Source of the DNA: Bolinopsis microptera
Taxonomy: Eukaryota; Ctenophora; Tentaculata; Lobata; Bolinopsidae
Length of the DNA stretch: 64,000 bases
Assembly: GCF_026151205.1 (NCBI RefSeq)
Contig: NC_087079.1
Coordinates: forward strand, 5,723,230 to 5,787,229
Reading direction: 5' to 3'
Positions 4,381 to 60,127 of this stretch are shown here, one piece after another. The position numbers were made by a program, and so were the translations under genes. Every line of letters starts with the position of its first letter. Within the stretch, counting starts at the first letter, position 1. The notes below the pieces were generated by a model. The model did no database searches and had not been told where the DNA came from. It saw nothing but the letters and a program-made list of their open reading frames with translations.

Positions 4381-4559
4381 AAATACTTAATGTCGGGGGA
4401 GGACAACCCCAACCCTCGAACCAAGAAACATGGATTTACGAGGGACGACACGGGTGTTCCCTCCGCAAACCGGCGGGATGCAAGCAGCTGGCAAGGCCGG
4501 CCCGGCCGGGTACGTTAAATTAGGCGTGGTTCTTAAGTAAAGCTTGATTTATCTGAGCG

Positions 4560-10626: not shown

Positions 10627-13314
10627 ATGAGTCACGACGACGCTCACGCGCAGGAAGAGGATTTTATCGCTCAGCGAATATCTGAGGACCAGGGATGGGT
10701 TCGTGTTCAGACACGTACCTTCACCCGATGGGTCAACGAGAACCTTAAGACTACCGAGTACCAGGTTAGCCTAATTTTAACCTCATTTAACCTCATTTTA
10801 ACCTTGTGTTAACCTTGGGTTAACCTTGTGTTGACCTCATGTTGATATTATTTATTATGATATTTACCTAATGTTCAATTATTGTGGACTTGTTTGACGA
10901 CACATTCAGATCTGAAACAAATTTCTAAGCACGATGTCCACTTATCATGGGTCCGGAATACTGAACATAGTTTAAAATTCACAACACTGTAGGTCATTTT
11001 GTCCGACCTCAAAATGTGATATCCCCTTTTTTTATAAATCAAAAATAATTTCTACTTTTTTCAGATTGAGAATTTAGACGACGACTTTGGAGATGGTTTA
11101 AAGTTAGTCTCTTTACTTCAACAACTCGCTGGCAAGGGAATCGGGGCTCGGTTCACAAAGAAACCTCGAATTCGTGCTCAAAAACTTGAAAATGTCAAGA
11201 TCTGCTTCGATTTTATGAATCGTGAAGGTACGTTACCATGGTTACATCGACCAATACTCAATAATAGACAAATAATGTTTCAATCGACTGAGAGGACATT
11301 TCCAATTAACTATCCGTGTATATATGTAATTAAGCTTCTTCCTGATTGCTCTACATATCACTCTGACAAGTATTTGTGGTATATGGCAGTTCTGAGATAC
11401 CCAGATACGTTATAAGCATTAATATGTCGATTAGAACACATTATTTCTCACTAAAAAATGCGATCAAATCCCGCTAAACAAATATGATCAAATTTGGATA
11501 ATGACACATAATTTTATGACAGATCATGTCATACAGTTAGTCTGTACAATATTTTACTCCAATATATATCAATTATCAACCTCTGATATTATATATCCTT
11601 CACTATAACCTACATTATATCCTACACAATATCCTATATTCTACTTTATCCTACATTATATCCTACACATTATCCTACACTATATCTTACACTATATCCT
11701 ACTTTATCCTACGTTATATCCTATACTATATCATACTTCATCCTACACTATATCCTACACAATATCCTACACAATATCCTACACAATATCTTACACAATA
11801 TCCTACATTATACTACATCATATTATACTACCAGATATTAACCCCTCATATTATATATCCTACTTTATCCTACATTATATCCTACACAATATCCTACACA
11901 ATATCCTACACAATATCTTACACAATATCCTACATTATCCTACATTATATCATACTACCAGATATTAACCCCTGATATTATATACCCTACACTATACCCT
12001 ACACAATATCCTACATTATCCTACTTTATCCTACATCATATCATACTACCAGATACTAACCCCTGATATTTACCCAGGTATTGAGATGGTCAACATTGAC
12101 AATCAGGATGTAGCCGACGGAAACATGAAACTTATTCTCGGTATGGTCTGGCATCTCATTCTTCACTACCAGGTTTGTTGGGGACTCATACTTAATTAAT
12201 TATATTAATTATACTTAATTAATATCAACTAAAATAATATGTGATTTGGTTGTGATAATTTTTACTCAGTCGGGTATTAGACCGGTGTTTGACTCCACTT
12301 GAATATTCTATATTTTAATGATTATCAGATTTTCAATGCGACTTCAATTGGGTGTTGTTTCTGCGAAGTAGAAAATCTCAAATAAAATTTATGAGACTTC
12401 CACTGACAGTAACGATATCCATACTTCCACTTTTTGTCTAAAATTATTCAGTTTTCATGTTCTAAATCTCATATTTCCAGATTGCAACCGGTTTTGAAGA
12501 TGACGGCGGCAAAGGTGGTCCCAAGAATCGTATTATCAAGTGGGTCAACAGCAAAATTAACCCCTGGGGTAAAAGCATTACAAACCTTAACAATGACTGG
12601 AACAACGGTAAGAACATTTAAATTGTTTTGGCTAATTTTAACGTCTAACATTTGCCGAATCTTGAACAAAAATCTCTAATTAAAACCACTCTTGAGGACG
12701 CACCTTAAATTATACCCGTTCACTCAAATCAAGTACAATTATTGTACTAATACTCGTTTCCCTATACCTCACCATATATTTTACAGGTACGATCTTGGCT
12801 TGCTTGGTCAACGCCCTTGCCCCTGGACTTGTACCTGACTTCAACGAGATGGAACCAGAATCTGCTAAAGACAACATTGAAAGAGCTATGGAAATGGCCA
12901 AGGAATGGATGGACATACCTCGCGTTATAGAACCAGATGATATGATGGATCCTAATGTAAGTAGTTTTCAGACAGTACTTATTTTCCCTGACTGTGTCCA
13001 GTTTGCTGCACGGCCTCCAACTGACAATTTTCAAGGCTGAGGAAGTGTGATCACGTGTATACGACACTCCTTTTTACAACCAGACCAGTCTATTGAGTAT
13101 TGACAATCGACATTCCTCAATACCACTTCTATCATCACAGTCGTTACCCTATGTTTACAGCAAGTTTCACTTTCACTACTAACACTTAATTTCACTTTCT
13201 TTTTCTAAACCGCCTTTTCCACCTCAGGTCGACGAACTGTCCATGATGACATACCTGTCGTACTTCCCCAACGCCAAGGTTAAAGAAGGAGCCCCTTGTG
13301 TAAATCCAGGCCGT
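10627..13314 (+). other. Filamin actin-binding domain (CH1-CH2), six exons
   Basis: Residues 1-260. CH1 starts around RTFTRWVNENLK and runs through KICFDFMNREGI and LGMVWHLILHYQI. CH2 includes RIIKWVNSKI, NDWNNGTILACLVNALAPGL, AKEWMDIPRVIEPDDMM and a MMTYLSYFP end. The order, spacing and signature segments match filamin/alpha-actinin type-3/type-1 CH pairs. All visible core tryptophans and the IP(R)VIEP region are present, so F-actin binding should be intact. Confidence 0.93.
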
Positions 13315-16300
13315 GTAAGTACTGAGTAATTATTCTAAGCTGAGCAGTTATCCTAATTGCTTTAAACACTTTTAACTCCGTCTCCTGGGCTAATGACTGA
13401 GATGTAGGGTTTCCCCGACCGTACATATTTCCAGCTTTGCAAAGGAAACCTTGCAGTCTTTTTGCAACAAGATATTTTAAATTTTTCAAGTAGGAACATG
13501 CTACGGCTTCTTAAGTCATAACTATGGGTAAAATTATGGTTTTTTATAACTTTGAATTATGATTATAAGTTTATTACAAAATTATCTAACTTCATATTTT
13601 CCACTCCAGTAATGTGGTAATCCGATTAGAAATTTATCAGATTTTATTTGTCAGATCTTGTTAGATTTTTATTTTATCAGATTTTGACCAATCCCCTGCA
13701 GGTAATCGCTCGAGGCCCAGGTATCACAGGAGTAGGCCTCAAGCTGGGCAAGCCAGCAGAGTTCGAGATAGATGCTTCAAAGGCTGGAGAAAACGGAAGA
13801 GACAAGATCAAGGTGGAGGTTCTCGGACCAGAAGGACCCGTTAAAGTCGACATGACTTCCAACGGGGATCTTACTTACTCTGGAGCCTACTTCCCTGAGG
13901 ATGATGGTGAATACACCATCAAGGTCACCCTTCTTAACTGCTCCGTCCCTAAATCTCCCTTCAAAGTGGGAATATACGGATCTCAGAAGACCGATCCCAA
14001 CAAAGTCAAGGTATCTGGACCTGGTATCACCGGTGAAGGTGTTTTGCCTGGTGACCCCGCTCCATTTATCATCGACTACAAAGAAGCTGGTCGTGGTCAG
14101 CCTCAGATTGAGGTGTTCGGACCCGACCATCAACCTCTTACCATCGTGGAGGACAACGACAAGAAGGAGGGTATCTGCAAAGTAGAATACCAACCTGGTG
14201 TGTTCGGAGAGTACACAGTTACCATCAAATACAGTGGTCTTCCTCTGCCAAACTCTCCATACAAGGTCAACATCAAGCCTACTGTGGATATCAGCAAAGT
14301 AAAGACCGAAGGCCCCGGACTGTCTAGGTGTAAGGTTGGAGAACCAACATGGTTCAAGGTACACACTGCTGGTGCTGGCAAGGGAGACCTTAGCGTTAAG
14401 ATTCTCCAGACCGACGGCACTGAACTGGAACCCACTATCAACAATGACGGCAAAGGTACATACCATATTGACTACACTCCCATGATGGTCGGAAGCTACA
14501 AGGTGACAGTCACTTACGGTCGATGCAAGATCCCCAAGTCTCCGTTCACTGTCACTGTGGTTCCTCCTGGTGATGCCGGCGAGGTTATTGTTAACGGTGA
14601 TGCCCTACATGGAATACGAGTAGGAATGACCGGCAGGCTCTTCGTGGATTCGTCCAAGGCTGGCAAAGGTGACCTCAAAGTTACCGTGATCGGACCCGAC
14701 AACAAACCCGTAACTTCTGGACTTGAACTGATCAGAACCACTGATGGAGTTTCAGAGTATGGTGTCACCCCTGAAGTACCCGGACCTCATGTAATTTCAG
14801 TATACTTCTCTGGTACTGCAGTGCCAGGCTCGCCATTCGATATTACAGTCCAACCCAGTCTGGATATTGAGAGGATCAAGCTTATTGTTGACCGAGAGAA
14901 CCCACCTAGGATTAACAAACAATACAAGTTCACAGTTGACTGCTCAGATGCTGGACCTGCTCCAGTTCTGTTCGGTTTTATCGGGGACCCGGATAACGAC
15001 AATCCTGATAAACCTAGGAAGGACATATTGGTAATCGTGTGTGACGATAAGGGCAACCCAATCAAGGACAAGAAAGGCAAAGTTATCACTATTGATGTCA
15101 GAGTACTGAAGTCATCTGGTATTTGCCACTTCACCTTTACACCTGAGGTTGAAGGCCCTATCTATCTGAAGGTGCAGTATGATGGAAAGAATGTACCCAA
15201 GAGTCCACTTAAGGTCAACGTTAGCTCTTTCATTGATATGAGCAAGGTTCGAATCTATGGGGACGGTATTACCACTGATAAGCCTGTTAGAGCCAACAAG
15301 CCTATGACCTTTGTCATTGATGCCACAAATGCTGGAGCCGGTCCTATTAGTTTGGACTTCCTTTCAAAGCTTGGATTCACAATCGGAAAAGACAACGTAC
15401 CCAAAGATATGAAGATCACTATTCTTGGGCCCAACGGCGAACCTATGACATGTGACGTAAGGAAGCGTACCGACAAGATCTTTGAAATCACAATTCTACC
15501 AATGCTTGTTGGCACGATGAACATCGATATCTTGGGAGCCAACGGTGAACATGCACCTAAGAGTCCACTTAAGATTCAAATCAAACCAAGTGTTGATGCT
15601 TCTAAGATTGTGATCGGAGGTGATGGACTTGAGAAAGACAAGGTACCAAGAAAGGACAAATTGTGTGCTCTCACAATCGATGCTCAAAAAGCTGGCAATG
15701 CTCCATTCTCCATTTCTGTCAATGGCAAGGACAAAACCCCTCTGTCATGTACCCCAACGATGAAACCTATTTACGGTACCACTCCCGTTAAATCAGGAAC
15801 CCCAATTAAAGTTGGTACCAAACCCGGAGAAGAAGGACCAGCACCTGGTGCAGGTAAACCAGGATTTGGGCCTGACGGAAAGCCTACTCCTGGCAACTTC
15901 ATCGCTCCTGATGGAACAATCAAAGATGATAAGAACCGACCGATCAAAGGCAAAGATGGCAAACCTCTCAAATGTTCTCTTGGAGGCGCTGGAAATCCCA
16001 ATGCTCCTAAGACTGATGACAAGGGTAACCTTCTTGGACCAGATGGCAAACCTCTGATTGGATCTGACGGTCGTCCCGTCAAACCTGGTACTGGTCCTGA
16101 TGGTCCCACTGCTGGTCCTGACGGAACTCTCTTTGGTAGCGATGGTAAACCGCTTCTAGGCAAGGACGCCACGCCACTCAAAGCTGGACAAATGCATGAC
16201 GGAAAGCCACTCTGCAACAACGAGGGTGAAATCCTTGGACCTGACGGTAAACCTGTTACTGGTCCTGATGGAGAACCTCTTAAGGCCAACAAAACACCGT

Positions 16301-19300
16301 TGGGTCTTACGGTTCTTCCAGATGGTTCTCTTATGACCCCCAGTGGAAAACCTCTGTGTGGTCCTGATGGCAATCCTTTGAAATGCGGTTTGGACAGCGA
16401 CAAGAAGCCTGTTATCGATGAGAAGGGTGCTCTCTGTGGCCCTGACGGTAAGCCTCTTGTTGGACCTGATGGAAAGTGCATCAAACCAGGTGCTGGAAGT
16501 CTCGGACCTATTGTGAAACCTGACGGAACCGTCACTGATGGATCTGGTAGACCACTGAAAGGTAAAGACGGAAAGCCTCTCATGGCTGCTATGGGATCAA
16601 GCGGAAAACCTAAAGTCAATGACAATGGTGATATCGTTGGACCTGACGGAAAGCCTCTGTTAATGCCTATCAAGAAAGGAAAGGGTCCTGGACTTACATT
16701 CCTGGCACCTGATGGAACTCTTTATGGTCCTGATGGAAGGCCAATCACAGGTGATGATGGCAAACCACTCAGAGCTGGACTTGGTCCTGATGGAAAACCT
16801 ATCACTGACGACTCTGGCAGTGTTCTAGGTCCTGATGGAGCTCCACTCTCTGGACCTGACGGAAAACCAGTCAAGTTAGGTGATGGTCCTTTCGGTCCTA
16901 AAGTTGGTCCTGACGGAACAGTATATGGACCTGACGGTAAGCCTCTCACTGGACCTGGCGGTAAACCACTCACAGCCAAACTCAGTCCTAGCGGCAAACC
17001 AGTCTCCGATGCTTTCGGAAATCTCTTGGGACCTGATGGTAAGCCTCTGACGGACAAAGACGGTAAGCCAGTGAGCCCTGCATCTGATGGCCCCAGTGCC
17101 GGACCAGATGGTTCACTTTATGGACCTAATGGCAAACCATTAAGGGGTACAGATGGCAAACCACTCACAGCTGCACTTGGTTCTGATGGCAAACCATTAA
17201 CCAACGACAACGGTGATATTGTTGGACCCGATGGTAAACCAGTCAAGGGACCTGATGGCCGACCTATCAAGGGACCTAAGGGTACTCCAATCAAAGCACC
17301 TGACGCCTTCCCAGGCCCCCACATTGGTGATGACGGAACTGTTACCAAAACTGACGGTGCACCCTTACTTGGATCTGATGGTAAGCCACTTAGAGCGGCT
17401 CCTGGAGGAAAGCCTCAGACTGACAAAGACGGAAACTTGGTTGGACCTAACGGTAAGCCTTTGGAAGGTGCTGATGGCAAGCCTGTTCCATCCAGCGGAG
17501 GACCATATGGCCCACTTGTTACTCCTGATGGTGATGTTGAAGGACCCGGAGGACTTCCAGTCATCGGAGCTGACAATGTGCCACTCGTCTGCGAACAAAA
17601 TCCAGAAGGTATACCTTGCAAGGATGGCGAAGGAAACCTTATTGGTCCTGACGGTCTGCCTCTTCTTGGCCCTGATGACAAACCTGTCGTTTTCGGTAAA
17701 GATACAGCAGAAGATACCAAGCCAGATGAACAACCGTCTGACATCAACGTTGTTATCCTGGGACCTGATGATAAACCAGTTCCTGCTACAGTTAAGGATC
17801 TCGGTGATGGCAAGTTTGCCGTGCAATACGAACCAAAGGAAGAAGGTCCACACAGACTTGATGTTCTGGCTGGAGGTGAACATGCACCAAAATGTCCTGT
17901 TGAGGTTGATGTTAAACCGTCTCTCGATCTGGATAAACTAGCATATGGCGTCGGAGGTGGTCCAAGGGTTGGCCCTGATGGAACTCTCTACGGCCCGAAT
18001 GGCAAACCTATTCTTGATAAGAATGGCAAACCATTAAAGTGTGCTCTTGGACCCATGGGTGGACCTCTCACAGATAAGGATGGAAATTTGTTAGGACCTG
18101 ATGGAAAACCATTGTTAGGACCTGACGGAAAGCCCATCAAAGGACCAAGTGATGATACGAACAAATCAGGAAAGGGTCTTGACTTGAAGATTAACCCAAA
18201 AGATCTTGGAGTTGACAAGCTGAACATCAAGCCCAAAGGACCAAACGATGGAGATAGTCCACCTGGAGCCGCATGTGGCCCGTATATAGGAAAGGACGGA
18301 CAAGTTCATACTCCATTAGGAACACCACTCCGCGGAAAGGACGGTAAGCCATTGAGGGCTACCCTCGGTAGTAATGGAAAGCCCGTCACCGACAAAGACA
18401 ATAACCTTGTTGGTCCTGATGGTGCCCCACTTATTGCTCCTGATGGCAATCCTATCAAACTTGGAAGTGGACCTTATGGACCAGCTGTTGGTCCTGATGG
18501 AACTCCCTTCGACAAGAACGGAAAGCCTCTAGTTGGGCCTGATGGAAAGCCCCAGAAAGGAGACATTGGACCTAAAGGAAAGCCCCTTGTTGATAAGGAA
18601 GGTAACCTTCTGAATCCTGCTGGACAGCCAGTGACTGACAAGGCTGGAAAACCTTTCACTCCAGGTGCAGGTCCTCACATCGGACCTGATGGAACAATAT
18701 ACGACGACAACGGTGAGCCTCTGATTGGAAGTGATGGTCGCCCTACACCAAAAGCAGCTATGACTCCTGAAGGTACCCCGAAATATGACAAGGATGGTGG
18801 CATTCTTGGATCCGACGGGAAACCAATACGAGGTAGTGATGGTAAACCTCTTAAAGCAGGAACAGGACCTTACGCTAAACCTGACGGTGAGGTATTCGAT
18901 TCTGACGGTTCCCCATCCAAAAACCCCAACGGTGAACCAAATCGTGCTGCTGTCGGCGAGGACGGAAAACCAGTCACTGATGCTAAAGGAAATCTCGTCG
19001 GTCCTGATGGCAGACCTCTCAAGGGACCTGATGGAAAACCTGTCCGCCCCAATCCTAATGGACCTAGTGGCCCTAGTGTAACTAGCGTTAAACCAGATGG
19101 ATCTATGTTGGGACCTAATGGTAAACCCCTGAAAGGTGCAGATGGAAAGCCTTTGAACGCTGCAATTGGTAATGATGGCAAGCCGAAGAAAGATCCTAAT
19201 GGAAACATGGTAGGAAAGGACGGAAAGCCACTCATTGGTCCAAATGGACTACCAATCAAACCTGGTCAAGGAGAATACGGCCCTAGAGTTGGACCAGACG

Positions 19301-22300
19301 GAACTGTCTTCAAGCCTAATGGTGATCCCGTACAAGGACCCAGTGGTAAACCAACAAAGGCAGGAATCGGTCCAGATGGAAGACCAATGGTAAATGACAA
19401 TGGCAACATTCTTGGACCAGATGGAATTCCTTTGGCTGGCAGGGACGGCAAACCAGTAACATCGAGTGAGAATCCCTTCACCGGTCCAGATGGTACCGTA
19501 TACAAGCCTGATGGTTCTCCCATTGGAGGAGGCAAAGGTGGAAAACCTTTGACAGCTGATCAGGACAAAGTTGGTCGTCCTAAGACCGACAAAGATGGAA
19601 ATCTTCTCGGACCTGATGGTAAGCCACTCCGTGGACCAGATGAAAAGCTGCTCAAAAACGGCATGAAGCCGTACGTATCTCCAGATGGTGATGTTATGAT
19701 GCCAAGTGGCAAGCCCTTGACTGGTAGTGACAAGAAACCACTCAAAGCTGGAGTTGGTCCAGATGGCAATCCTGATATTGACGACAAGAATTGCATCTTA
19801 AATCCTAATGGCCAGAACGTTAAAGGTAAAGACGGAAAACCAGTCCAGACTTCACCTAATGGACCGAAAGGTCCTGGACCAGGTTCTTACATCGGACCTG
19901 ATGGAATTCTGTACGGACCTGACGGAAAGCCTCTCCTAGGACCTGATGGAAAGCCACTGAGATGTGCACTGGGACCAAATGGTAAACCTCTCACAGATAA
20001 GGATGGAAATCTGTTGGGACCTGACGGTAAGCCTCTTCTCGGACCCTGATGGTAAGCCTATTAAGCTGGGACAAGGACCTTATGGACCAACTACTGGACC
20101 TGACGGAACAGTGTACGGCCCAGATGGAAAACCAATCCTTGGACCTGACGGTAAACCTCTTAGGGCAGGTCTTGGTCCTGATGGAAAGCCATTGTGCGAT
20201 GAGAACGGTAATCTGCTTGGACCTGATGGAAAACCATTGACTGACAAGAACGGAAATCCAATCAAACCAGGTGATGGCACAGCATTTGTTGGACCTGATG
20301 GAACAGTCTATGGACCTGACGGACATCCACTTCTCGGACCAGATGGCAAGCCACAGAAATGCATGCTTGGTCCAGATGGAAACCCTATGACTGATAAGGA
20401 TGGAAATCTTTTAGGACCTGATGGCAAGCCTCTTAAAGGCCCTGATGGGAAACCAGTGAAGCTTGGTGCAGGTCCAGTTGTTGGTCCCGATGGTATTGTT
20501 TATGGCCCAGACGGTAAGCCTCTTTTGGGACCTGACGGAAAGCCTCTTGTGGCTGCACTTGGATCAAATGGTAAACCTCTTAAGGATAAGAATGGAAATC
20601 TTATCGGACCGGACGGTAAACCACTTCTTGGACCTGACGGAAAGCCATTGCATTCCGCTCCTGGTGGACCTGATGGTGCTGGACCGGGTCCTTATGCTGG
20701 TCCCGATGGCACTTTGTATGGCCCCGATGGGAAACCTCTCCTAGGACCTGATGGAAAGCCATTGAAGGCAGGACTCAACCCAGACGGATCACTCATGTTG
20801 GATGATAATGGTAACATCCTGGGACCTGACGGAAAACCTCTCATCGGACCAGATGGAAAGCCGATCAAACCTGGATCTGGCTACGGCCCAGGTGTAGGAC
20901 CTAATGGAACTGTGTATGGTCCAGATGGCAAACCACTGCTCGGACCTGACGGTAAGCCCCTCAAGGCTCTTCTTGGAAACCCCAAGACTGACAAAAATGG
21001 GAACCTCCTTGGACCTGATGGAAAGCCTGTTCTCGACAAAAATGGCAAACCAGTGCCAGGGGATGGAAAGCCATTCATCGGACCCGACGGAACATTGTAC
21101 GGTCCTGATGGGCAGCCACTTTTGGGTCCTGACGGCAAGCCTCTTAAGGCAGGTATGGGTCCAGATGGAAAGCCATTATTTGACAAAAATGGAAACCTCT
21201 TGGGACCAGACGGAAAACCATTAGTCGGACCAGATGGCAAGCCATTCAACAAAGGAGCTGTTGGTTCAGATGGACAAATTTACGGACCTGATGGCAAGCC
21301 TCTTACAGACAAATATGGTAATCCTCTGAGAGCAGGATTAGGAAAACCAAGGACAGATAAGGATGGAAATCTGATAGGCGAAGACGGCAACCCAATGTTG
21401 GGACCTGATGGTAAGCCACTCAGGCCTGGACAGTTGCCTTATGTCGGACCTGACGGTACTGTCTATGGTCCTGATGGTAAGCCTCTGCTAGGCCCCGATG
21501 GAAAACCATTGAGAGCTGGTCTCGGACCTGATGGAATGCCCCTTTACGACCACAATGGTAATCTCCTTGGTCCTGATGGTAAGCCACTTCTTGGACCTGA
21601 CGGACTTCCAATCAAGACCGGACCTGGTCCTCACGTTGGTCCTGACGGTACTGTGTATGGTCCCGACGGAAAACCAATCCTTGGGCCAGATGGTCTGCCT
21701 CTTAAGGCTATGATGACTCCTGATGGAAAGCCGTTCACAGATCCTAATGGCAATCTTCTGGGACCAGATGGCCGCCCTCTTTTGGGACCTGATGGAAAGC
21801 CATTAAGAGCCGGTCCAGGTAGCAGAGGACCAAAAGTTGGTCCTGATGGCACAGTCTTTGCTCCTGGAAACACAATTGGCCCAGATGGTACCGTATACGG
21901 TCCTGATGGCAAGCCAATTGATAACAGCAGTATCCTGGGACCTGATGGAAAACCACTTCTTGGACCTGACGGCAAGCCCGTAAAGCTTGGCGGAAAACCA
22001 TCAATCGGCCCTGATGGCACAGTCTACGGACCTGACGGCAAACCAATTCTTGGTCCTGATGGCAAGCCTCTAAAGGCAGGTCTCGGTAAAGATGGAAAGC
22101 CATTATTTGACAAAAATGGAAACCTCTTGGGACCAGATGGAAAGCCACTTTTGGGACCCGATGGTAAGCCTCTAACAGGTGGGGCAATTGGACCTGACGG
22201 AACTGTGTTCGGACCTGACGGAAAACCAGTCCTCGGACCTGATGGAAAACCACTGAAAGCCGGTTTGGGACCAGATGGACGTCCTCTTAAGGACCACAAA

Positions 22301-25300
22301 GCTCCTCCTAGCACTGACAAAGATGGCAACATTCTTGGACCCAATGGAAAACCTCTTGTTGACAAGGATGGAAACCCTGTCAAGATGGCTGGCAAGCCTT
22401 ACATTGGTCCTGATGGAATCCTGTATGACGAAGAAGGAAATCCTCTCCTAGGACCAGACGGAAAGCCTTTGAAGTGCGGTCTTGATAAGAATGGTAAGCC
22501 ATTGTTCGATAAGAATGGTAATCTTCTTGGACCAGATGGTAAACCACTGCTCGGACCTGACGGTAAGCCGCTTAGCAAGGGAGCTGTCGGACCAGACGGT
22601 ACAGTATATGGACCTGATGGCAAACCTATCATCGGACCAGATGGTAAACCACTTAGAGCAGGTCTGGGACCAGATCCAACAACGCTCAAAGCTCTGATGA
22701 GTCCTCCTGATACAGACAAGGACGGAAATCTCCTCGGTCCAGACGGGAAACCACTGACTGATGCAAATGGTAACCCAATCAACGCCACTGACAAACCTTA
22801 CATCGGACCAGATGGTACATTGTATGGCCCAGATGGGAAACCTCTCCTAGGACCTGACGGCAAACCCCTTAAATGTGGTTTCGACAAAAATGGCAATCCT
22901 CTCTTTGACGAAGATGGTAATCTTCTGGGACCTGACGGAAAGCCACTCGTTGGACCTGATGGTAAGCCATTCAACAGAGGAGCTGTTGGACCTGACGGTA
23001 AACTGTTTGGCCCTGACGGTAAACCAATCTGCGACAAAGACGGAAATCCAGTGTTTGCTTCTCTTGGAGCTCCTAAAAAAGACAAGGATGGAAATCTTTT
23101 GGGACCTGACGGTAAGCCTCTTACAGGACCCGATGGCAAACCAGTTGGTGAAGGCCCCGAGGTCATCTTAGGACCCGATGGAAAACCACTCAAGGCTGGA
23201 TTAGGACCTGATGGCAAGCCAAGGCTTGGACCAAATGGTGAACTTCTGGGACCAGACGGAAAACCATTAGTCGGACCAGATGGCAAGCCTCTAAATGTTG
23301 GCAATGGCCCATCTGTTGGTCCTGATGGCACAGTTTTCGGACCTGATGGAAAACCTTTACTTGGACCTGACGGTAAACCACTCAAAGCTATGCTTGGCCC
23401 CGATGGCCAACCAATAACTGATAAGGATGGTAACTTGATTGGACCGGATGGAAAACCATTGGTTGCCGGTGACGGAACAAATGGTGGTCCAAAGGTAGAC
23501 AAAGATGGAGCTCTACTCGACAAAGATGGTAAACCTCTTCTCGGACCGGACGGCAAGCCACTTAGATGTGGTGTTGACAAGAATGGCAATCCTCTTGTAG
23601 ATAAGGACGGAAATCTTCTTGGACCTGATGGAAAGCCTCTGATCGGAGCCGATGGTCAACCTATAAAATGTGCTCTTGGCCCAGATGGCAAGCCCAAGAA
23701 GGACAAACATGGTAACCTTCTTGGACCAGACGGCAAGCCTATCATCAAACCTGGAAACCCAGTATCTTCTGGAAAACCTGCATCTGGTGGTCCAATTGTT
23801 GGTCCCGATGGTACTTTGTTGGGACCTGATGGTAAACCACTTCTCGGACCTGATGGCAAGCCACTCAGAGCAGGACTTGGACCTGACGGAAAACCACTTA
23901 AGGATGCTAATGGCAATCTCCTTGGACCTGACGGTAAACCACTTCTCGGACCTGATGGCAAGCCTATCAAAGGAGGAACATCTATGAATCCAGATGGTAC
24001 ACTCGCTGGACCAGACGGTAAACCTTTGTTAGGACCCGACGGTAAACCTCTGCAAGTTGGAGTAGGAAAGCCATTAGTTGATGAAAATGGTAACATGCTC
24101 GGACCTGATGGCAAGCCCTTGTTGGGACCCGATGGTAAACCAGTGAAAGGACCAATTGTGTCCCCTGATGGAACTGTTTTGGGACCAGATGGAAAGGCTC
24201 TATTGGGACCAGATGGTAAACCTCTGAAGGCTGGAGTTGGACCAGATGGAATACCTCTTGTTGACAAGAACGGAAATATCCTTGGTCCAGATGGAAAGCC
24301 ACTGCTGGGTGCTGATGGAAAGCCTCTGAAGGCTGGATGTTTAGTGTCCCCTGATGGCACAATACTTGGACCTGACGGTGCCATAATACTCGGACCTGAC
24401 GGAAAGCCGCTACATGCCGCTCCTGGTGCTCCTTTGACTGACGATAATGGCAACATACTTGGACCTGATGGTTCACCTCTTGTTGGAACTGATGGCAAGC
24501 CAATCAAGGCTGGAATCCCAACAAACGGTCCTATGTGTGGACCAGATGGTACCCTCTTGGGACCTGATGGTAAGCCAATCATTGGAGCTGACGGCAAACC
24601 TCTGAGAGCAGCTCTTGGACCAGATGGGTTACCTATGGTTGACCAAGACGGAAATCTTCTTGGACCTGGAGCAAGGCGTCTACGTGGTCCTGATGGCAAG
24701 CCAATACACGCTGGACCATCTGTTGGTCCTGATGGCGTTGTCAGGAGCCCAGATGGCTTCCCAATTGCTGGCGCTGATGGTCTGCCTCAGATTTGTATGA
24801 TGGACGACTTTGGTAAGTTGATGTGTGCACCTGACGGAACACTCATGGGAGAAGATGGAATTCCCATCATCGGACCAGCTGGCAAACCTATCAACGAACA
24901 TTGTGCTCCTCCAAATGGACCTCCCACCGGACCTGACGGCACTGTCTACGGCCCTGATGGTAAACCTCTTCTCGGACCTGACGGAAAACCACTTAAAGCA
25001 GGTCTCGGACCCGACGGTCTTCCTTTGACAGACAAGGACGGAAATCTCCTTGGACCTGACGGAAAACCATTAAAGGGACCTAACGGACAACCAGTACGAG
25101 CAGGACCATGCGTTGGACCTGATGGAGTTGTTAGACACCCAGATGGCACCGTTGTTAAAGGTTTAGACGGCCAGCCTATCAAGGCCGCAGTTGGACCTGA
25201 TGGCAAGCTAATGGTAGCCCCTGATGGAACTCTTCTTGGACCTGATGGCAAGCCACTTTGTGGACCTGATGGCAAACCAATGAAACCTGGCAGTGGTATT

Positions 25301-28300
25301 GGACCAGATGGAACTTTGGTCGGACCAGACGGTCAAGCACTTGTTGGACCAGACGGTAAGCCTCTCAAGGCAGGTCTCGGTCCTGATGGAAAGCCACTTC
25401 TTGGACCTGACGGAGCTCTACTCGGACCTGATGGAAAGCCATTGGTTGGACCTGATGGCAATCTCATTGGTGCTGATGGTAACCCGCTACTTGGACCTGA
25501 TGGTCGACCTGTTCGTCCTGGAACAACAGTCGGACCTGATGGAACAGTTTTCGGACCAGACGGCAAAGCTTTATTGGGACCTGATGGAAAACCACTGAAG
25601 GCTGGTCTTGGCCCTGACGGCAAGCCCCTTAGAGGACCAGGAGGAGAACTTCTAGATGAAGACGGTAATCCTCTTGTTGATGAGAACGGTAATCCTATCA
25701 AACCTGGAACAACAGTTGGCCCCGATGGAACCGTGTACGGACCTGATGGTAATGCACTCATTGGACCTGACGGCAAGCCTCTTAAGGCTGGTCTAGGTCC
25801 CGACGGAAAGCCACTTCTAGGACCTGACGGATCGCTTCTTGGACCTGATGGTAAGCCACTTCTTGGACCTGATGGTAAACCTGTTGGTCCTGGCAATGAT
25901 CGAACTCATGCTACTGGTCTTGGTCCTGATGGAAAGCCTCTTGGACCTCTTGGTGCTGACGGAAGACCTCTGCCAGTTGAAGAGGGAGGTGATATGACAG
26001 TGATGTGTGTTGGACCTGACGGAGATCTTGTTCCAGTAGAAATCATCGAGAACCCTGACGGAACCTACTCCGTAAAGGCAGCTCCTGGAATAGAGGGCGA
26101 CTATGTTGCTGACATAATCGGGCCTGATGGCAAGAAACTCGCAAGTATTCCATTCCATGTTGAACCCCAGATCGATGCCAGTAAGGTTAAGATTAACGGT
26201 GATAGCATTGATGGAGTCGTCAAGAAAGACAGGCCAACAAGCTTTGAAATTGACACCACAGATGCCGGAAAAGGACCATTCACTGCGTCACCTTACGAGC
26301 CGGAGACAGTCAAGAATGGAGGTATTCCCGGAGTCGGAGACAAAGACGGACCCAAGAGTCCTGATGAGGAAGATACTGACATCAAGGTTGCTGTTATCGG
26401 ACCCAACGGAGAACCAGTCGACTGCACAGTTGTTGACAAGGGTGACGGTTTGTTCGATGTTTCATACAAGCCCACAAAGAAGGACCCCACAAAGTCGTTG
26501 TTACAGCTAACGATGATCTGGTGCCTGGTGCCCCAGTTCCAGTGGATGTCTTCCCCAACGGAGATGCAAGCAAGTGCAAAGCAAGTGGACCTGGTCTTGA
26601 ACCTAAAGGACTCGTTGCAGGTAAACCTGGCACTTTCAAGGTTGATGCTACCCGAGCAGGCGATGGAGACGTGGAGGTTGTTGTTACCTCTCCTAATCCT
26701 AAGTTCGATGCTGGTGTAAAGGTCACCAAGAGAGGAAAGGGAATATTTGATTGCGAATACAGTCCTTCATTGAAGGGACCGTATGAGGTCAAGGTACTCT
26801 TCGCTGGAGAGGAAATCCCCGGCAGTACATACGCTGTCAAGGTTGCTCCTAACCCCAACGCTGAGAAGGTTATCGTTTCTGGCAAGGGTCTCAAGAAGGG
26901 CTATGCCAAGAAACCTAACAAGTTCACTGTTGCACCTAACGGAGCTGAAGGAGCCCTTAACTTCGACGTTGAAGGACCCTCTAAGTGTGATATTGATGTG
27001 GAAGACAACGGAGATGGAACTGTGACAGTTACCTACACTCCTCAAGAAGCCGGAGAATACACCATCAACGTCACCTTGGATGGTGCACAAGCCCCTGGAG
27101 GTCCATTCTTCCCTCTCATTGAGGAACCACAACCGTCTGATGCCTCCAAGGTTAAACTTTCAGGTGATGGAATCGGAAACAACGTTAAGACCGGAGTTCC
27201 TTCGACCATCAAGATCGACGCGTCGGAAGCAGGCCCAGGAGATGTTGGTGTTGTCATCAAATCTCCAAGTGGATCCAAGGTTCCAGTTAAGATCATCGAC
27301 AATGAAGATGGAACATACGACGTTACCTTCGTTCCTGAAGAGGTTGGAAACCACAACGTCGATGTCAAGTTTGACGGGGATAAGGTGCCTGGTGCCCCTC
27401 TCACTGTTCCAGTTAAACCTGGTATTGATGCCAACAAGGTGAAATGTGCTGGAGACGGTCTCGATAATCCCAAAGCAAAACACGACAATGTGTTCACGAT
27501 CGACACTAGTGACGCTGGACCTGGAGATGATGTTACCGTTGAAATCGTTCCAATCGACAAATCTGGTAAACCAATCCCTGGAGGCAAACGAGTTCCTGTT
27601 ACCATCAAGGATCTCGGAAACGGTATCAAGTCTTGTGTTTTCAAACCGGATGATGAAGGACTCTATTCAGTGGATCTCAAATTCTGCGGAAAGAACCCCA
27701 AGGACTTCCCTCGCGGTATTAACGTTAAGGGACCAGGTGCTCAGGGAGCTCGTCTACCTAACATCAATGGTCTTGAGGTCGAACCAGATCAAGAGATCAA
27801 CATTCCAGTTGACCTCAGTGGTTCAGGCCCAGGTAACTTTGTTGTTATCATGAGGAACGACACAACCGGAGAAGAAGAACCAGTCCGTGTGACTGATGGA
27901 CCTAACCTGATCAAGAACGTTACTCTGAAACCAAACGGTTCCGGACCACACACCATTGTCATGACATTCGATGATGAAGATCTTCCCGGTGGACCATACA
28001 CCATCACCGTCAAGAAACCAGTCGGTGCTGATGCATGCTTCATGAAACCAACTAAGGATGGCAAGCTGTTCACCCCTGACGGCGACTTTTTGTCCTTCGT
28101 TATCGATCTCAGCCAAGCCGGACCTGGATCTCTTACTGGTATTGCCAAGACACCAAGTGGTAAGACTGTGCCAATTGACATTGAAGTTGATAAGGATACT
28201 GGACTCGCACAGATCAGGTTCAAGCCTACTGAAAGAGGAATCCATATCATCAACCTACTGTTCAACGGTCATCCAATCCCCGGATGTCCATTCGAAATGG

Positions 28301-31300
28301 ATATCCAAGGACCTGCTGATGTAACAATGAACGGCGGAAAACCAAGAGATGGATCCAACACAATCTGTCTAGATCTCGACGACAGATCTCTGGTGGTTGT
28401 TCCTAACCTGGTAAATGTCAAGATAACTAGAGGACAGGACATGAAGATCCCAATCGATCTTACCTTCTCTGGAATGGGAGAGATCGAGGTTACCTGTATC
28501 CACGACTCAACCCTTGAACATGTCCCATGCAAACTTGTGGACACTCCTAACGGAAAGGAAGTACAAGTCAGCCCCAAAGAACCCGGCTGGTACACTGTCC
28601 ATCTCAAGTTCAACGGACAGAACTTACCTGGAAGTCCATACAAATTCGAGGTCAAGGAACCCACTGGTGCTGACGCCTGCAAGATCAAGCGAGGCCCCAA
28701 GTCACCTCTCAAGGAGGGAGATGAAGTTACTCTTATCATCGATGTGTCCAAGGCTGGCGAGGGACAACTCCTCGGAACATGCAAGGGACCTGATAGCAGT
28801 AACATCACTGTGAGGACCACAACTTTGGACAACGGAGATATTGAGGTATCATTCAAACCAAGAGGAGATGGAGACCACACCCTGGATCTCACTTTCAACA
28901 ACAGATCCATCCCTGGATGTCCTGCTATCGTCAACATCAGACACGTTACCCCAGACAGCATGGGTCTTGTATTGGACCTTGCACCATGGGAGGTGGACGC
29001 TGGAGCTAAGGGAGCTAAGGGAGTCAGACATCCTAACTTCGACGATATCACCGTACAGCTCAACCAGACCATGAAGGTTAGATTTCAAGTTATTTCTTTT
29101 CCTTTTTTGAACATTTGTGAACAATTCCTTCAAAAAAATGAATTTCTTTTTTTGAATCACATCGATAAACTATTTTGCTAGTAACCTAAAACTGTTCACT
29201 TTCAGATTCCTATTGATCTGAGTGCTGCTGGCCCTGGTAACATAGAGGTATCCTGCATGCAGGAGAAAACTAAAACTCCTTGCCCAGTCACTGTTATACC
29301 CACCAAACAAGGTTATTATTGTTAATTAAGTATTATTGTTAACTGTTAATTAAGTTGAATCGTAAAAGTCTACTTTGAACTGAGAGGCCGATTAGTTTGT
29401 CTATATTTTAGGTTAAAATAACTTACAGATATAGATATAGTATAGATCCCTATACAAGTCTAAACCACAGCCTATTTTTAGACATTTAGACATGTATTTT
29501 TATCAAGGGATTCTTTATACATCCCTTCATCAATTGAAAAATACCCATGACCCTACTTTACTAGGTGCTGTTGAGATAGCTGTGAAGCCCCTGGAAACAG
29601 GACCTCATCTACTCCACATCACCTTCAACGGAGTGGATCTGCCCAAGTCTCCATTCAGATTCATGGTGGAACCACCAAGCGGTGCTAACGCTGTCACTCT
29701 CAAGAAGAACGCACAGGCTGTCAAGGTAAATAATCTTGTCCCCTTTAGTTCTTTTAACTATTCTTTGGACTTGAGTCTGAGTTGTTTGAATGAAATGGAA
29801 CCACATCAGTGCTTGTCAGCCAATATTATTCAAGATATAGGCAAATGACTTTGTCATGACTGGCCTCTTACACACTGAGGAAACTATTGTAAGTGACAGT
29901 GAGCATGAAACTGAACTGTGCCTACTATTCAGGTTGTGAAGGACGGAGTACAGTTTGCTATCGACTGTTCCAGAGCTGGACCTGGTGTACTTACCGCCGC
30001 CTGCACTGGACCTGATGGACAACTCGTACCTTGCGACTGCAAGAAGGTAAAAATTGGTTTTAAGTTATAAATATAAATATATTATAATGTGTATTGTGTA
30101 AGTTATATATTATAATGTGTTAGTTTCATAGCCGTATGGTTGCCGGAAAATGAGAGTTTACAGAACACTGGTGAAGGTTCAAAACTTGCAATTTTACTAC
30201 CGATAAATTATAGCCGTTAATGTATTTAACGGCCAAACCAATAGTTAGTATTATGCAGCGTCATGTTTACAGCGTAACATTACACGCATAATATGAGAAA
30301 TATTACACGCTCCACGATAACAAATAATAATGATAATTCACAATATAATGCGTACCAGCCATAACATGATAGTAACAACCATAAACCCACAGTCCGGTAG
30401 CGACCAGCTGATAACAATAAAGCCCACCAAGCCTGGACTTCACTCCCTGGAAGTTATGTGGGACGGCCAACAAATCCCCGGATCACCGATTGAGATAATG
30501 ATTAATATGGTAGACGGACGAATCATTTACGAGCTTTGCGACGTACTGTTGATGCTGATGGGTGCTTTCACCGTGAGAACCCCTGATCTCAGTAACATCC
30601 AACTTGAGATTAACCAGTTTATTAGGATTCCTATTGATTGCAGACTTGCTGGTCCTGGAAAACTTCAGGTTTGTTTTTAGGATTTATTGGTTTGTTGGAA
30701 TTTTGGTTTGTTCAGTGGGATTTATCAAGGGTTCATTTCTAACTGTGCCCCGGACTGCAACTAGAGAGTGCACAAAATTTGTTACCCCCTTGTACACTGT
30801 ACTATACACAGTTATTCCATACTAGTCTCACCTCCTGCTTTGTAATATTTTCGCTGAGTAAATTCCGAGGTTTTAATTTGCTTTTCCTGCTTTCACCCGG
30901 CCTACCGGATGAAACGCTGCAAATCTCATTATAGGAGCTGCACAATCTGTCACGTGACTACGTTTTGTTGTGTCACGTGACAAGTTGATGAGCCTTTTAA
31001 GAAAATATTTAACTTTTTCCAAATAGATTGAGTGATAATAATGTTAAAATGAGGGTCATCAGTCGGTCTATTTAGAAAGAAGAGATTCTTGAAATAATAC
31101 TCAAATAAGACTCAACAACAGCACAGCCGTACAGGTCTTACGATTCAGTAGCAAAAAACTCTATGCAGTGAAGTGCACACTCAACACCTCCCTGCTACTG
31201 CAGTATACTATGGTAATTGCTCAATCACATGATAATATGTTTAACTCAGGTCACCTGCAAAAATGAGGACACTGGAACTTCCATTGATTGTGATATGAAG

Positions 31301-33015
31301 AAGACCGGAGATATGTACGAGATTACAATCAAACCTACAGGTAATTATCATCCAAATAGTTCCATTCCCACCACTCATTTGTCAAATCGATTAGATTCAA
31401 GTTTTCTTTCAAGTGAAAACGTCTAAAGCCGCCGCCGATCAAAAAAGAAGTTACCAATGAATATTTCTACCACTCCTAGCCAAGTTTAAACAATTTCCCT
31501 TGATCAGATCCTGGTCGACACGCTCTGAACATCATGTGGGACGGTAAGCACATCCCAGGATCCCCAGCTTACTTCACAGTAAAGGGACCTGCCCCTGCTA
31601 GACTCTGTTACATCCTCTCTGGAGCTGACCACATCAAGTGCAGCAAGGGAGCTATATCGTTCAGGTTGGTTAACTGGTGCTGTAACAGTTGCGGCAGAAT
31701 CACGTATAGTTGATATCAGTTCACTGTACTGATTGTGATTCTGTAGGTTTTGTATGTTATTCTGTAGCTGCTGGAAAACTTGCCAGCCCAAGCTGACATG
31801 TAGGAACTTTACAGAAATTGTATGCAGCGATACTTTGATTCCGGAACAGTTCAGCTGCCAACAAATAGAAATACTGGGGGAATGTGTTTGCTCAAAATAA
31901 TATGCTTAATTTCTATTGTCACTAAGCATATAATCCTGAATTCCGCTGGCCCAGTGCAAGACTAGTTTGGGTTCTGATAAATTTCTATTACATCTATCCC
32001 CTTAAACAAGCCGAATATTTTAACACGATCCCTTCAGATGTACCACCCAAGAAGCAGGCAAAGGAGAACTTACTGCCATTGGAGTAGATCCGTTCGGTAA
32101 GCAGTTCGAGTGCGAAATCACTGAAGAACCTAACCTAACCTACGCTATTGCCTTCAAACCGGAGGTACCTGGTGTACACAACGTAGACGTTAAGTACAAC
32201 GGGCTGAGCATCAACGGCAGTCCTGCCCTCATTGACATAAAGTCCCTACCACAGGTACTATTAGAAATATTCAACATTCCACGCTACTGTATTTAGCTAT
32301 TCACCTCGACTTTAATCAACTGCATACAATACGTATAGCCTTAGAAAGGAAGTGTAGCTGGCCACTTAACTGGCTACTTAACTGGCCACTTAACTGGCCA
32401 CTTAACTGGCCACTTAACTGGCCACTTAACTGGCCAGTGTCGCTTATTTAACGTGCTCAATGACCTACATATCCACCTGATCCACACCATCTTAACCAAT
32501 ATCACCCCAGGGAGATGAGGGTGGTATCTCGCTCGAGCTGATCAGCTGCAGAGACACAACCTCCAGTGGCGCCGGAACGGAAACCCAAGTCCAACAGAAA
32601 GCGACCATTACCCTGCCCATCCCACAGAAGGACCACAGCGGACTTTCGGTGTCTTGTAAGGGACCTGATGGAAGCGATCTGCCTTGTGAGGTAAAACTCC
32701 CTTTATCTTTTCAAGTTTTATTTGGATTCAGTCACATTCCAGTTTCATAACAAAAATTGAAAACTTGTCAACTAAATTTATGGTGCGCCATTAAAATATG
32801 AGACGCACAATAACCACTCATTTTATTTATTATATATGTATAATAATTATATATTTTATTTTATATATTCTTTATTTCAGTTGGGTGCCAGTACTGACGC
32901 CGGTATTAACGTTCTGTTTGAACCAAGTCAAGGTGGTAAACACACTTTGACGGTCATGTTGAACGGTAATAACTACCCAGGGACGCCTGTAGACGTAGAA
33001 GTACAAGGACTGTAG
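10627..33015 (+). CDS. FLN: Giant filamin (actin cross-linker) with GPDGKPL repeat insertions
   Basis: Filamins cross-link cortical F-actin and act as mechanosensing scaffolds. Exons read from GT-AG sites and phase: 10627-10764, 11065-11227, 12078-12172, 12481-12607, 12787-12956, 13228-13314, 13702-29076, 29206-29311, 29565-29725, 29933-30046, 30393-30668, 31250-31340, 31508-31664, 32038-32254, 32511-32690, 32881-33015 (TAG). The phases agree throughout. The N-terminus has two CH domains (residues ~24-260). About 22 Ig-like filamin repeats follow, recognisable by AGxG and SPxxVxV motifs, ending in a probable dimerisation repeat. Two insertions of GPDGKPL repeats (~3300 residues in total) interrupt repeats 7 and 8, giving ~5860 residues. 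One extra base (20044-20046) and one missing base (26482-26483) shift the frame across the middle of the giant exon and then restore it. The ATG at 10627 directly follows an acceptor AG, so an upstream exon exists (see 6479-6544). Filamin identity is near certain; frame integrity is not. Confidence 0.93.
11580..12070. repeat. Intronic ATATCCTACAC minisatellite
   Basis: Dozens of imperfect copies of a 10-11-bp TATCCTACAC(A/T) unit fill most of the intron between exons 11065-11227 and 12078-12172. A longer ~150-bp period is also visible, with blocks repeating ACTACCAGATATTAACCCC. Not coding. Confidence 0.85.
13702..15749 (+). other. Filamin Ig-like repeats 1-6 and N-half of repeat 7
   Basis: Six complete repeats end in SPFKVGI, SPYKVNI, SPFTVTV, SPFDITV, SPLKVNV and SPLKIQI. 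Most carry the family's AGxG strand-B motif and a GPDxxP-type C-C' turn (for example IGPDNKPV, LGPNGEPM). Repeat 7 begins at about 15590 (VDASKIVIGGDG) and reaches AGNAPFSISV before the first insertion breaks it. Confidence 0.9.
15750..17735 (+). repeat. GPDGKP repeat insertion 1 inside filamin repeat 7
   Basis: About 660 codons of loosely periodic GPDGKPL-type units, with spacers such as DKGNLLGPDGKPLIG. It starts with a Pro/Gly/Thr-rich transition after ...GKDKTPLSC and ends where filamin sequence resumes at SDINVVILGPDDKPV. Units are more degenerate than in insertion 2. Glycine is not at every third position, so this is not a collagen triple helix. Codon use at third positions varies freely between otherwise identical units. 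Confidence 0.88.
17736..17950 (+). other. C-half of filamin repeat 7 and start of repeat 8, between insertions
   Basis: INVVILGPDDKPVPATV, then KFAVQYEPKEEGPH and HAPKCPVEVDV, supply strands C to G of an Ig-like filamin repeat. DLDKLAYGVGGGP is strand A of the next, which insertion 2 then interrupts. The two halves of repeat 7 are therefore ~660 residues apart in the primary sequence. Confidence 0.82.
17951..25984 (+). repeat. GPDGKP repeat insertion 2 inside filamin repeat 8
   Basis: About 2680 codons. The regular part has a super-repeat of roughly 64 residues: GPDGTVY, GPDGKPLL, GPDGKPLK, a 3-residue step (AGL/CGL/CAL), GPDGKPLx, D(K/E)(D/N)GNLL, GPDGKPLL, GPDGKPxK, then a 7-15 residue Pro/Gly linker. 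From 20045 it reads in the next frame because of one extra base. Gly, Asp and Pro codons are scrambled synonymously between copies. Lys and Asp balance, so the tract is close to neutral and very hydrophilic. Structure is unknown; PDG turns suggest stacked beta-hairpins or a flexible spring. Confidence 0.9.
20044..20046 (+). other. Apparent +1 frameshift in filamin exon
   Basis: Repeat units here normally read GGACCTGATGG; this one reads GGACCCTGATGG. The extra C makes the upstream frame hit TGA at 20047-20049, while the +1 frame continues GPDGKPI with no loss of motif for 6.4 kb. A homopolymer sequencing or assembly error is the simplest cause. Confidence 0.85.
26482..26483 (+). other. Apparent -1 frameshift restoring the filamin frame
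   Basis: Around SYKPTKK the sequence reads AAGAAGGACCCCAC, where the conserved filamin reading (KKGPHKVVV) needs one more G. After this point the protein continues in the original frame with DLVPGAPVPVDV. The missing base cancels the extra base near 20045. It lies in a G/C homopolymer context. Confidence 0.85.
32345..32440. repeat. Intronic GGCCACTTAACT tandem repeat
   Basis: About seven near-identical 12-bp units in the filamin intron between 32254 and 32511. Confidence 0.9.

Positions 33016-52157: not shown

Positions 52158-60127
<7,970 letters not shown>

What the first reader, a model, noticed from the sequence alone, without database searches (positions are those of the whole stretch)
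17951..25984. Filamin carrying ~3300 residues of a GPDGKPL repeat, more than doubling its length
The flanking CH domains and ~22 filamin repeats are unmistakable, yet two blocks (15750-17735 and 17951-25984) of an octapeptide-based repeat are read through in the same exon. Filamins have two short hinges, not a multi-thousand-residue repetitive rod. If expressed, this would be an actin cross-linker with a very long, near-neutral Gly/Pro/Asp/Lys spring between the N-terminal and C-terminal rods. I know of no described filamin of this form, but I could not search.
Basis: partly seen in the sequence, partly recalled or inferred. Interest (0 to 1): 0.92.

Follow-up and report, generated by a model that had tools for sequence, protein, structure and literature searches.

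The report
Comb-jelly filamin with huge repeat insert
A comb jelly has a giant version of the actin-linking protein filamin in which two of its domains carry long chains of about fifty similar small modules that evolution has kept almost unchanged, a build not known to us from other animals.

Summary
The window lies in a ctenophore genome, probably Bolinopsis microptera. A 16-exon GT-AG gene (10627-33015) encodes two CH domains, 22 filamin Ig repeats and about 3,270 residues of repeat (~598 kDa), most of it in one 15.4-kb exon. The frame is not unbroken: it shifts by one base near 20,047 and back near 26,470. I read these as likely assembly errors: an independent ctenophore contig (misfiled in a Rhodopirellula MAG) is open for 2,507 residues across the first site. 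It has 34 of 34 covered units in the same order, no amino-acid indel inside a unit, 89% identity and dN/dS about 0.075, so selection acts on the protein. The true unit is 62-67 residues (about seven GPDGKPL-like turns), about 50 copies. Both blocks lie inside Ig repeats, Ig7 (clear) and Ig8 (less clear), in the strand B-C region, so they look like side arms of the rod rather than a spring between two rods. The module has no above-threshold family match and no significant PDB match. Its predicted fold is beta-rich, with known caveats. Expression was not testable here.

The parts
10627..13314 (+). Exons 1-6 (10627-10764, 11065-11227, 12078-12172, 12481-12607, 12787-12956, 13228-13314): ATG and the tandem CH actin-binding domain
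   Evidence: GT-AG ends, in phase; Pfam CH E=4.8e-41, filamin ABDs best PDB hits
13702..29076 (+). Exon 7, 15,375 nt: Ig1 to the start of Ig18, and both repeat blocks
   Evidence: AG before and GT after; open frames
15592..15750 (+). Ig7, N-terminal half (strands A-B and a C-like strand)
   Evidence: self-built Ig HMM, positions 1-48 of 88, 14.7 bits
15895..17700 (+). Repeat block 1: 602 residues, 9 units, inside Ig7
   Evidence: unit HMM rows 993-1593; orthologue 1:1
17734..17898 (+). Ig7, C-terminal half (strand C onward)
   Evidence: Ig HMM positions 33-87, 34.8 bits; Pfam Filamin E=1.3e-13 for the same part of the orthologue
17923..17961 (+). Ig8 start (strand A-like, by reading); a weak strand B-like stretch lies at 18154-18249
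   Evidence: the B-like stretch scores only -3.8 bits
17962..25957 (+). Repeat block 2: 2,664 residues, about 41 units, ending inside Ig8
   Evidence: unit HMM; codon analysis; orthologue covers it to about 22981
19081..19884 (+). Four-unit superunit A-B-C-D, aligned in the same order with superunits of the C1 gene
   Evidence: 39-48% identity to six C1/C56 superunits; unit tree for two of the four subtypes; AlphaFold2 pLDDT 85.4, pTM 0.79
20044..20050 (+). Frame change 1 (one base); not present in the orthologue
25988..26152 (+). Ig8, C-terminal half
   Evidence: Ig HMM positions 34-76, 21.8 bits
26171..26535 (+). Ig9, with a 30-residue insert at the same B-C position (26285-26374) and frame change 2 near 26,470
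29206..33015 (+). Exons 8-16 (29206-29311, 29565-29725, 29933-30046, 30393-30668, 31250-31340, 31508-31664, 32038-32254, 32511-32690, 32881-33015): rest of Ig18, Ig19-Ig22 and TAG stop
   Evidence: internal ends GT-AG, single stop at the end; Pfam Filamin E=2.6e-59

Best explanation
This is a working, very large ctenophore filamin whose Ig7 and Ig8 each carry, in the loop region between strands B and C, a long tandem array of a folded, beta-rich module of 62-67 residues (9 units in Ig7, about 41 in Ig8). Shown here: the gene model, the insertion places (clear for Ig7, less so for the start of Ig8), the module, purifying selection on the protein, and an independent orthologue with the same array. 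Inferred: the module folds (short beta strands joined by GPDG turns); because each array leaves and re-enters the same Ig repeat, the arrays stand off the filamin rod as two side arms near its N-terminal end, so that each actin-bound filamin carries a big, stiff, near-neutral scaffold that spaces filaments or binds partners, and opening of Ig7 or Ig8 under load would put the array in line as extra length. The two frame changes in this assembly are inferred to be residual sequencing errors.
For: Gene coherence: 16 exons, GT-AG, one stop at the end. Selection: pS 0.71 vs pN 0.31 among units; orthologue dS 0.83, dN 0.062, omega 0.075 over 2,497 codons; block 1 0.092 (602 codons), block 2 0.045 before (695) and 0.086 after (977) the frame change; Ig parts 0.018 (64 codons) and 0.109 (89), linker 944-991 0.139 (47). 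34 of 51 unit rows lie in the part that the orthologue covers; all 4 internal amino-acid indels (1, 2, 5, 2 residues) fall outside units. Insertion place: Ig7 halves at residues 891-943 and 1605-1659; Ig8 C half at 4356-4398; smaller inserts at the same place in Ig5, Ig6 and Ig9. Module: HMM rows in C1 (37), C56 (48) and C12 (7), none in the 30 kb read of the C7 filamin locus; the seven C1 subtype-4 units group with window unit 2250 (support 100/96) and the seven of subtype 3 with 2185 (99/85). Fold: AlphaFold2 pLDDT 81.5, pTM 0.42 for an ordinary four-unit stack, 85.4 and 0.79 for the superunit. Errors: the B. microptera assembly is described as wtdbg v2.4 with later Illumina polishing (PMC10232365, passages); the C1 giant gene also passes from frame to frame at five places looked at.
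Against: No transcript or peptide was seen. Frame change 2 is outside the orthologue, and one filamin frame of the same assembly (C7) runs 11.7 kb without a change, so errors are not everywhere. [quoted passage not shown] the ordinary stack has a low pTM. The N half of Ig8 is poorly recognisable (B-like stretch -3.8 bits), so for the larger block the geometry with both ends in one Ig domain is less sure. Superunit order is backed by the tree for two of four subtypes only, and best pairwise partners agree well only for subtype 4. No structure of a split Ig7 or Ig8 was predicted: my alignment for it failed. Function is inferred only.
Confidence: 0.55

Rival explanations
1. In-line entropic spring: the blocks are unfolded Gly/Pro/Asp/Lys chains that link two rods.
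For: Composition 21-22% Gly, 16-17% Pro, no Trp, little aromatic; AlphaFold2 may over-predict order in repeats (PMC11795689, abstract); low pTM of the ordinary stack.
Against: Block 1 lies within Ig7 and block 2 ends within Ig8. Conservation of 34 of 34 covered units without amino-acid indels at dS about 0.8 and omega 0.045-0.092, and subtype-specific residues kept in a paralogous gene, are unusual for a loose spring.
Confidence: 0.17
2. In-line stiff spacer: the modules fold, but Ig7 and Ig8 no longer close, so the arrays lengthen the rod itself.
For: Ig8 N half is degenerate; modules are predicted to fold; Ig7 N half scores only 14.7 bits.
Against: Both halves of Ig7 are kept in the orthologue, the C half most of all (omega 0.018, 64 codons), and the smaller inserts of Ig5, Ig6 and Ig9 at the same place suggest that the Ig fold tolerates them.
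Confidence: 0.22
3. Assembly artefact or decayed gene: the repeat is a chimera or a pseudogene with frameshifts.
For: Two one-base frame changes.
Against: Independent orthologue open across the first site with the same unit order; low dN/dS on both sides of that site; intact splice sites and stop.
Confidence: 0.04

Closest known systems
Filamin (FLNA/FLNB/FLNC type: CH-CH, Ig repeats)
   Same: Tandem CH domain with filamin ABDs as best PDB hits, Pfam Filamin repeats, 22 Ig repeats.
   Different: Mammalian filamins have 24 repeats and two hinges, between 15/16 and 23/24 (PMC7714767, passages); here about 3,270 residues of another module sit inside Ig7 and Ig8.
Flagellar rod/hook proteins FlgF/FlgG/FlgE, D1 stretch
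   Same: Local sequence likeness: 23 of 23 rows of A1 match TIGR02490 flgF at E<=0.01, best 6.1e-11, over about 45 residues in the row shown; flagellar chains recur among non-significant Foldseek hits.
   Different: Far under the family cut-off (38.1 vs 178.5 bits); only one beta stretch matched; likely analogous turns, origin not shown.
Short GPDGKPL-type runs in bacterial and viral contigs (L039, L040, L041, L045-L047)
   Same: The same octapeptide motif, 2-6 GPDGKP copies each (counted by eye).
   Different: No 65-residue unit array and no filamin seen in the frames printed; read as convergence.
Giant muscle proteins (titin/connectin)
   Same: Very large, modular, actin-related (works-like only, recalled).
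   Different: Not filamin-based (recalled; not compared here); connectitin is reported absent from ctenophores (PMC12198301, passages).

Membership tests
Filamin | N-terminal tandem CH actin-binding domain | tested here: met
   Pfam CH two stretches, E=4.8e-41; filamin-B 3fer E=4.9e-70, ahead of alpha-actinin at 4.3e-41
Filamin | Rod of filamin-type Ig repeats (24 in mammals) | tested here: met
   22 repeats; Pfam Filamin E=4.5e-112, 1.5e-14, 3e-124 and 2.6e-59 for the pieces
Filamin | Short hinges as the only breaks in the rod | tested here: not met
   inserts of about 660 and 2,675 residues inside Ig7 and Ig8; a variant feature rather than one that excludes it from the family
Filamin | Dimerisation by the last Ig repeat; actin cross-linking | not testable with these tools
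   last repeat present; no assay
FlgF/FlgG/FlgE D1 | Curated family score | tested here: not met
   38.1 bits against cut-off 178.5; PF22692 15.7 against 27
Known solved fold for the module | Significant PDB match by fold or sequence | tested here: not met
   Foldseek 0 of 110 and 0 of 112 matches at E<=0.001; by sequence best E 0.004
Entropic spring (elastin, PEVK type) | Disordered, fast-evolving chain | tested here: inconclusive
   slow and without indels inside units, predicted beta-rich, but disorder not measured

The most novel reading that the evidence does not exclude
Ctenophores built a new class of giant actin cross-linker: an undescribed folded module (no solved relative found) was multiplied about fifty-fold inside two Ig domains of a filamin and then frozen by selection, giving a filamin with two force-gated side arms. 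The same module, in a four-unit order, was spread to a second giant filamin-like gene and to a third locus, in a phylum reported to lack titin-type proteins.
Probability: 0.33. Interest if true: 0.86.

Novelty: new variant of a known kind. Interest (0 to 1): 0.72.

Why it matters
Filamins are usually described as a rod with two hinges. A lineage near the root of animals has put more than half of a 600-kDa filamin into a different, highly constrained module, hosted inside Ig domains. If expressed, it shows that a mechanosensing rod can carry large cargo without losing its frame, adds a protein module of unknown fold, and offers a candidate giant cytoskeletal protein in animals reported to lack titin-type proteins. 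Tandem arrays often turn over fast (general knowledge); one frozen unit by unit between species is a good test case for repeat-protein evolution.

Tried and rejected
Pseudogene or chimera: disfavoured by the orthologue. Recent DNA-level tandem expansion: rejected, units share amino acids but not codons; by contrast C56 holds near-identical 1,401-bp copies. Bacterial origin of L038/L044: rejected, the contig is one open frame colinear with the window, and its codon usage correlates with the window's repeat exon at r=0.971 and with the window's Ig part at 0.796, but with one other contig of the same MAG (L043) at 0.678 (the first value is helped by shared residues). Known family for the module: PHROGs 0 of 3 proteins at E<=0.1, Pfam only sub-threshold, NCBIfam flgF sub-threshold, PDB by sequence weak. 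PADLOC was not searched for it. Origin from the filamin strand C turn (GPDGKPV-like in several Ig repeats of this gene): plausible, not proven. A model of split Ig7 was planned; MAFFT misplaced the Ig rows, so it was not run. For the species name: 18S search failed twice by machine error, COX1 gave 0 matches. Rows left out: 7 of 51 window units; 4 of 51 window units, 9 of 37 C1 rows and all 48 C56 rows in the tree and score comparison; of the stacks listed, 3 of 19 window, 1 of 6 C1 and 2 of 2 C12 were not put into A1.
Full report
What it is. The window is C8:5723230-5787229 of a 264.65-Mb genome. The S1 parts of the ligand-binding domains of two of its glutamate receptors (L036, L031) have as best hits among 177,635 distinct PDB sequences the receptor named ML032222a (recalled: Mnemiopsis leidyi; E=1.3e-33 and 2e-37) and then 4zdm (recalled: Pleurobrachia), far ahead of vertebrate receptors; the full-length query L035 ranked kainate receptors first and ML032222a just behind. 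The size and the largest contig I saw (26,206,493 bp) equal the values printed for Bolinopsis microptera (265 Mb, 13 chromosomes, largest 26.2 Mb; PMC11797021, passages), although that table gives 346 scaffolds and this assembly has 232 contigs. I take it as B. microptera or a close relative.

The gene. Reading exon by exon gives 16 exons with GT-AG ends, an ATG at 10627 and a TAG at 33013-33015. Exon 7 alone is 15,375 nt. The open pieces hold 2,375, 2,139 and 1,346 residues; total about 5,860 residues, 598.5 kDa. The N terminus is a filamin-type tandem CH domain. A profile built from eight Ig repeats of the gene finds 22 Ig repeats.

The frame changes. The frame moves by one base near 20,047 and back near 26,470. 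The code after the first change is under much the same constraint as the code before it (omega 0.086 and 0.045). The orthologue is open at the first place and does not reach the second. The published B. microptera genome is described as a wtdbg v2.4 assembly, later polished with Illumina reads (PMC10232365, passages), and another giant gene of this assembly (C1) passes between frames at five places that I looked at; on the other side, a C7 filamin frame runs 11.7 kb without a change. I conclude that sequencing error is the likeliest cause, and not proven.

The repeat. The unit is 62-67 residues, roughly xVGPDGTVY-GPDGKPLL-GPDGKPLKAGL-GPDGKPLTDKDGNLL-GPDGKPLL-GPDGKPIKPG; 51 profile rows in this gene (some partial or overlapping), of which 44 full-length ones were compared codon by codon: 946 pairs, mean pS 0.709 (minimum 0.471), mean pN 0.308; codon-position mismatch 0.333, 0.260, 0.637. 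So the array is old, is not homogenised at the DNA level, and is held at the protein level.

The orthologue. Three (L039-L041) are bacterial contigs with short runs of the octapeptide. The fourth, L038, is a contig filed under a Rhodopirellula MAG. The whole contig (L044, 7,524 bp) is one open frame of 2,507 residues, from the end of Ig6 through Ig7, block 1 and block 2 to window residue 3353. Of 2,498 aligned residues 2,234 are identical (89.4%); DNA identity is 83%; there are four internal amino-acid indels, all outside the unit rows. The one difference of length inside a unit is the window's own frame change. Its codon usage is close to that of the window gene and less like another contig of the MAG: I read it as contaminating DNA of another ctenophore.

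Where the blocks sit. Ig7 is split: profile positions 1-48 at residues 891-943, then block 1, then positions 33-87 at 1605-1659. Ig8 shows positions 34-76 at 4356-4398 after block 2; its start is only a short A-like strand and a weak B-like stretch (1745-1776, -3.8 bits). Ig5, Ig6 and Ig9 have short inserts at the same place (28, 21 and 30 residues by the profile alignment), so Ig5-Ig9 share a widened B-C region; by reading, a C-like strand stands before and the C strand after the insert. Block 1 and block 2 are the two extreme cases of a series.

Relatives in the genome. The same module occurs on C1 (37 rows) in a giant filamin-like gene, on C56 (48 rows, near-identical 1,401-bp copies, probably an unplaced part of the C1 array) and on C12 (7 rows); the 30 kb read of the C7 filamin locus has none. 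In C1 the units come in fours. The window stretch 19081-19884 is 39-48% identical to six such superunits in one alignment. In a tree of 82 units, with few columns and many open forks, the C1 units of subtype 4 group with window unit 2250 (100/96) and those of subtype 3 with 2185 (99/85), while subtypes 1 and 2 are not placed with a window partner of the same rank. By pairwise score, 7 of 7 C1 subtype-4 units choose 2250, but only 2 of 7 of subtype 3 choose 2185, 2 of 7 of subtype 2 choose 2121 and 0 of 7 of subtype 1 choose 2055.

Fold. AlphaFold2 gave pLDDT 81.5, pTM 0.42 for an ordinary stack (23 rows) and 85.4, pTM 0.79 for the superunit (10 rows), both with short beta strands and bridges and no helix. 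Foldseek found no PDB match at E<=0.001 (0 of 110, 0 of 112). All 23 rows of A1 match the FlgF profile (best E 6.1e-11) but far under its cut-off where the score was shown. Weaker likenesses to DUF3659 and DUF6799 exist (4 and 5 of 23 rows). AlphaFold2 is known to over-predict beta-solenoids for repeats (PMC11795689, abstract and outline), so the fold is a hypothesis.

Mechanism. Shown: protein-level constraint, insertion place, unit. Partly shown: the four-unit order. Inferred: folded modules; side arms; scaffold or spacer role; possible length release when Ig7 or Ig8 opens. I give this 0.55, against 0.22 for an in-line stiff spacer and 0.17 for an in-line spring.

Novelty. Text searches for filamin with GPDGKP, ctenophore, Mnemiopsis, insertion and evolution terms found no paper on such a filamin (listings, apart from the passages named). 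The library lacks most subscription papers; a paper on filamin evolution (Light et al. 2012, seen only in a reference list) is not held. No eukaryote sequence collection could be searched.

Noticed in passing
window 53096-55138 and 55131-56645: Two adjoining arrays of a 171-172-bp satellite, apparently head to head (the second consensus reads, by eye, as the reverse complement of the first).
   Followed up: no
window 40086-41825 and 47192-48802: Two single-frame Trypsin + SRCR genes, the first with a 12-bp tandem repeat at 40772-41041. In the second the SRCR match is under the Pfam cut-off.
   Followed up: no
window 42199-43386, strand -: Reverse-transcriptase fragment (Pfam RVT_1 E=1.7e-20) between the two protease genes.
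   Followed up: no
C1:2372268-2400950 (L017-L020): A second giant filamin-like gene with acidic repeats and superunits of four modules; its last part is broken up in the assembly and near-identical copies sit on contig C56, which also has about 1.6 kb of poly-A.
   Followed up: partly
C12:7412943-7416526 and C12:7445622-7449737 (L024, L025): CH-domain matches in and beside a 3,586-residue open frame some 29 kb upstream of the third GPDGKP array, with a Ser-rich repetitive frame in between; may be one giant gene. The stretch between was not fetched.
   Followed up: partly
C12:5.69-5.81 Mb and C7:12.34-12.36 Mb: Further filamin-repeat clusters with open frames up to 3,245 and 3,914 residues.
   Followed up: no
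L044 (NZGD01000003.1): Ctenophore-like filamin DNA filed as part of a Rhodopirellula MAG: a contamination worth flagging, and a handle on a second ctenophore.
   Followed up: yes
L039 1377-3434, L041 402-2405: Short GPDGKPL runs in bacterial proteins that look like DotG/IcmE and FliF (names recalled, no family search run).
   Followed up: no
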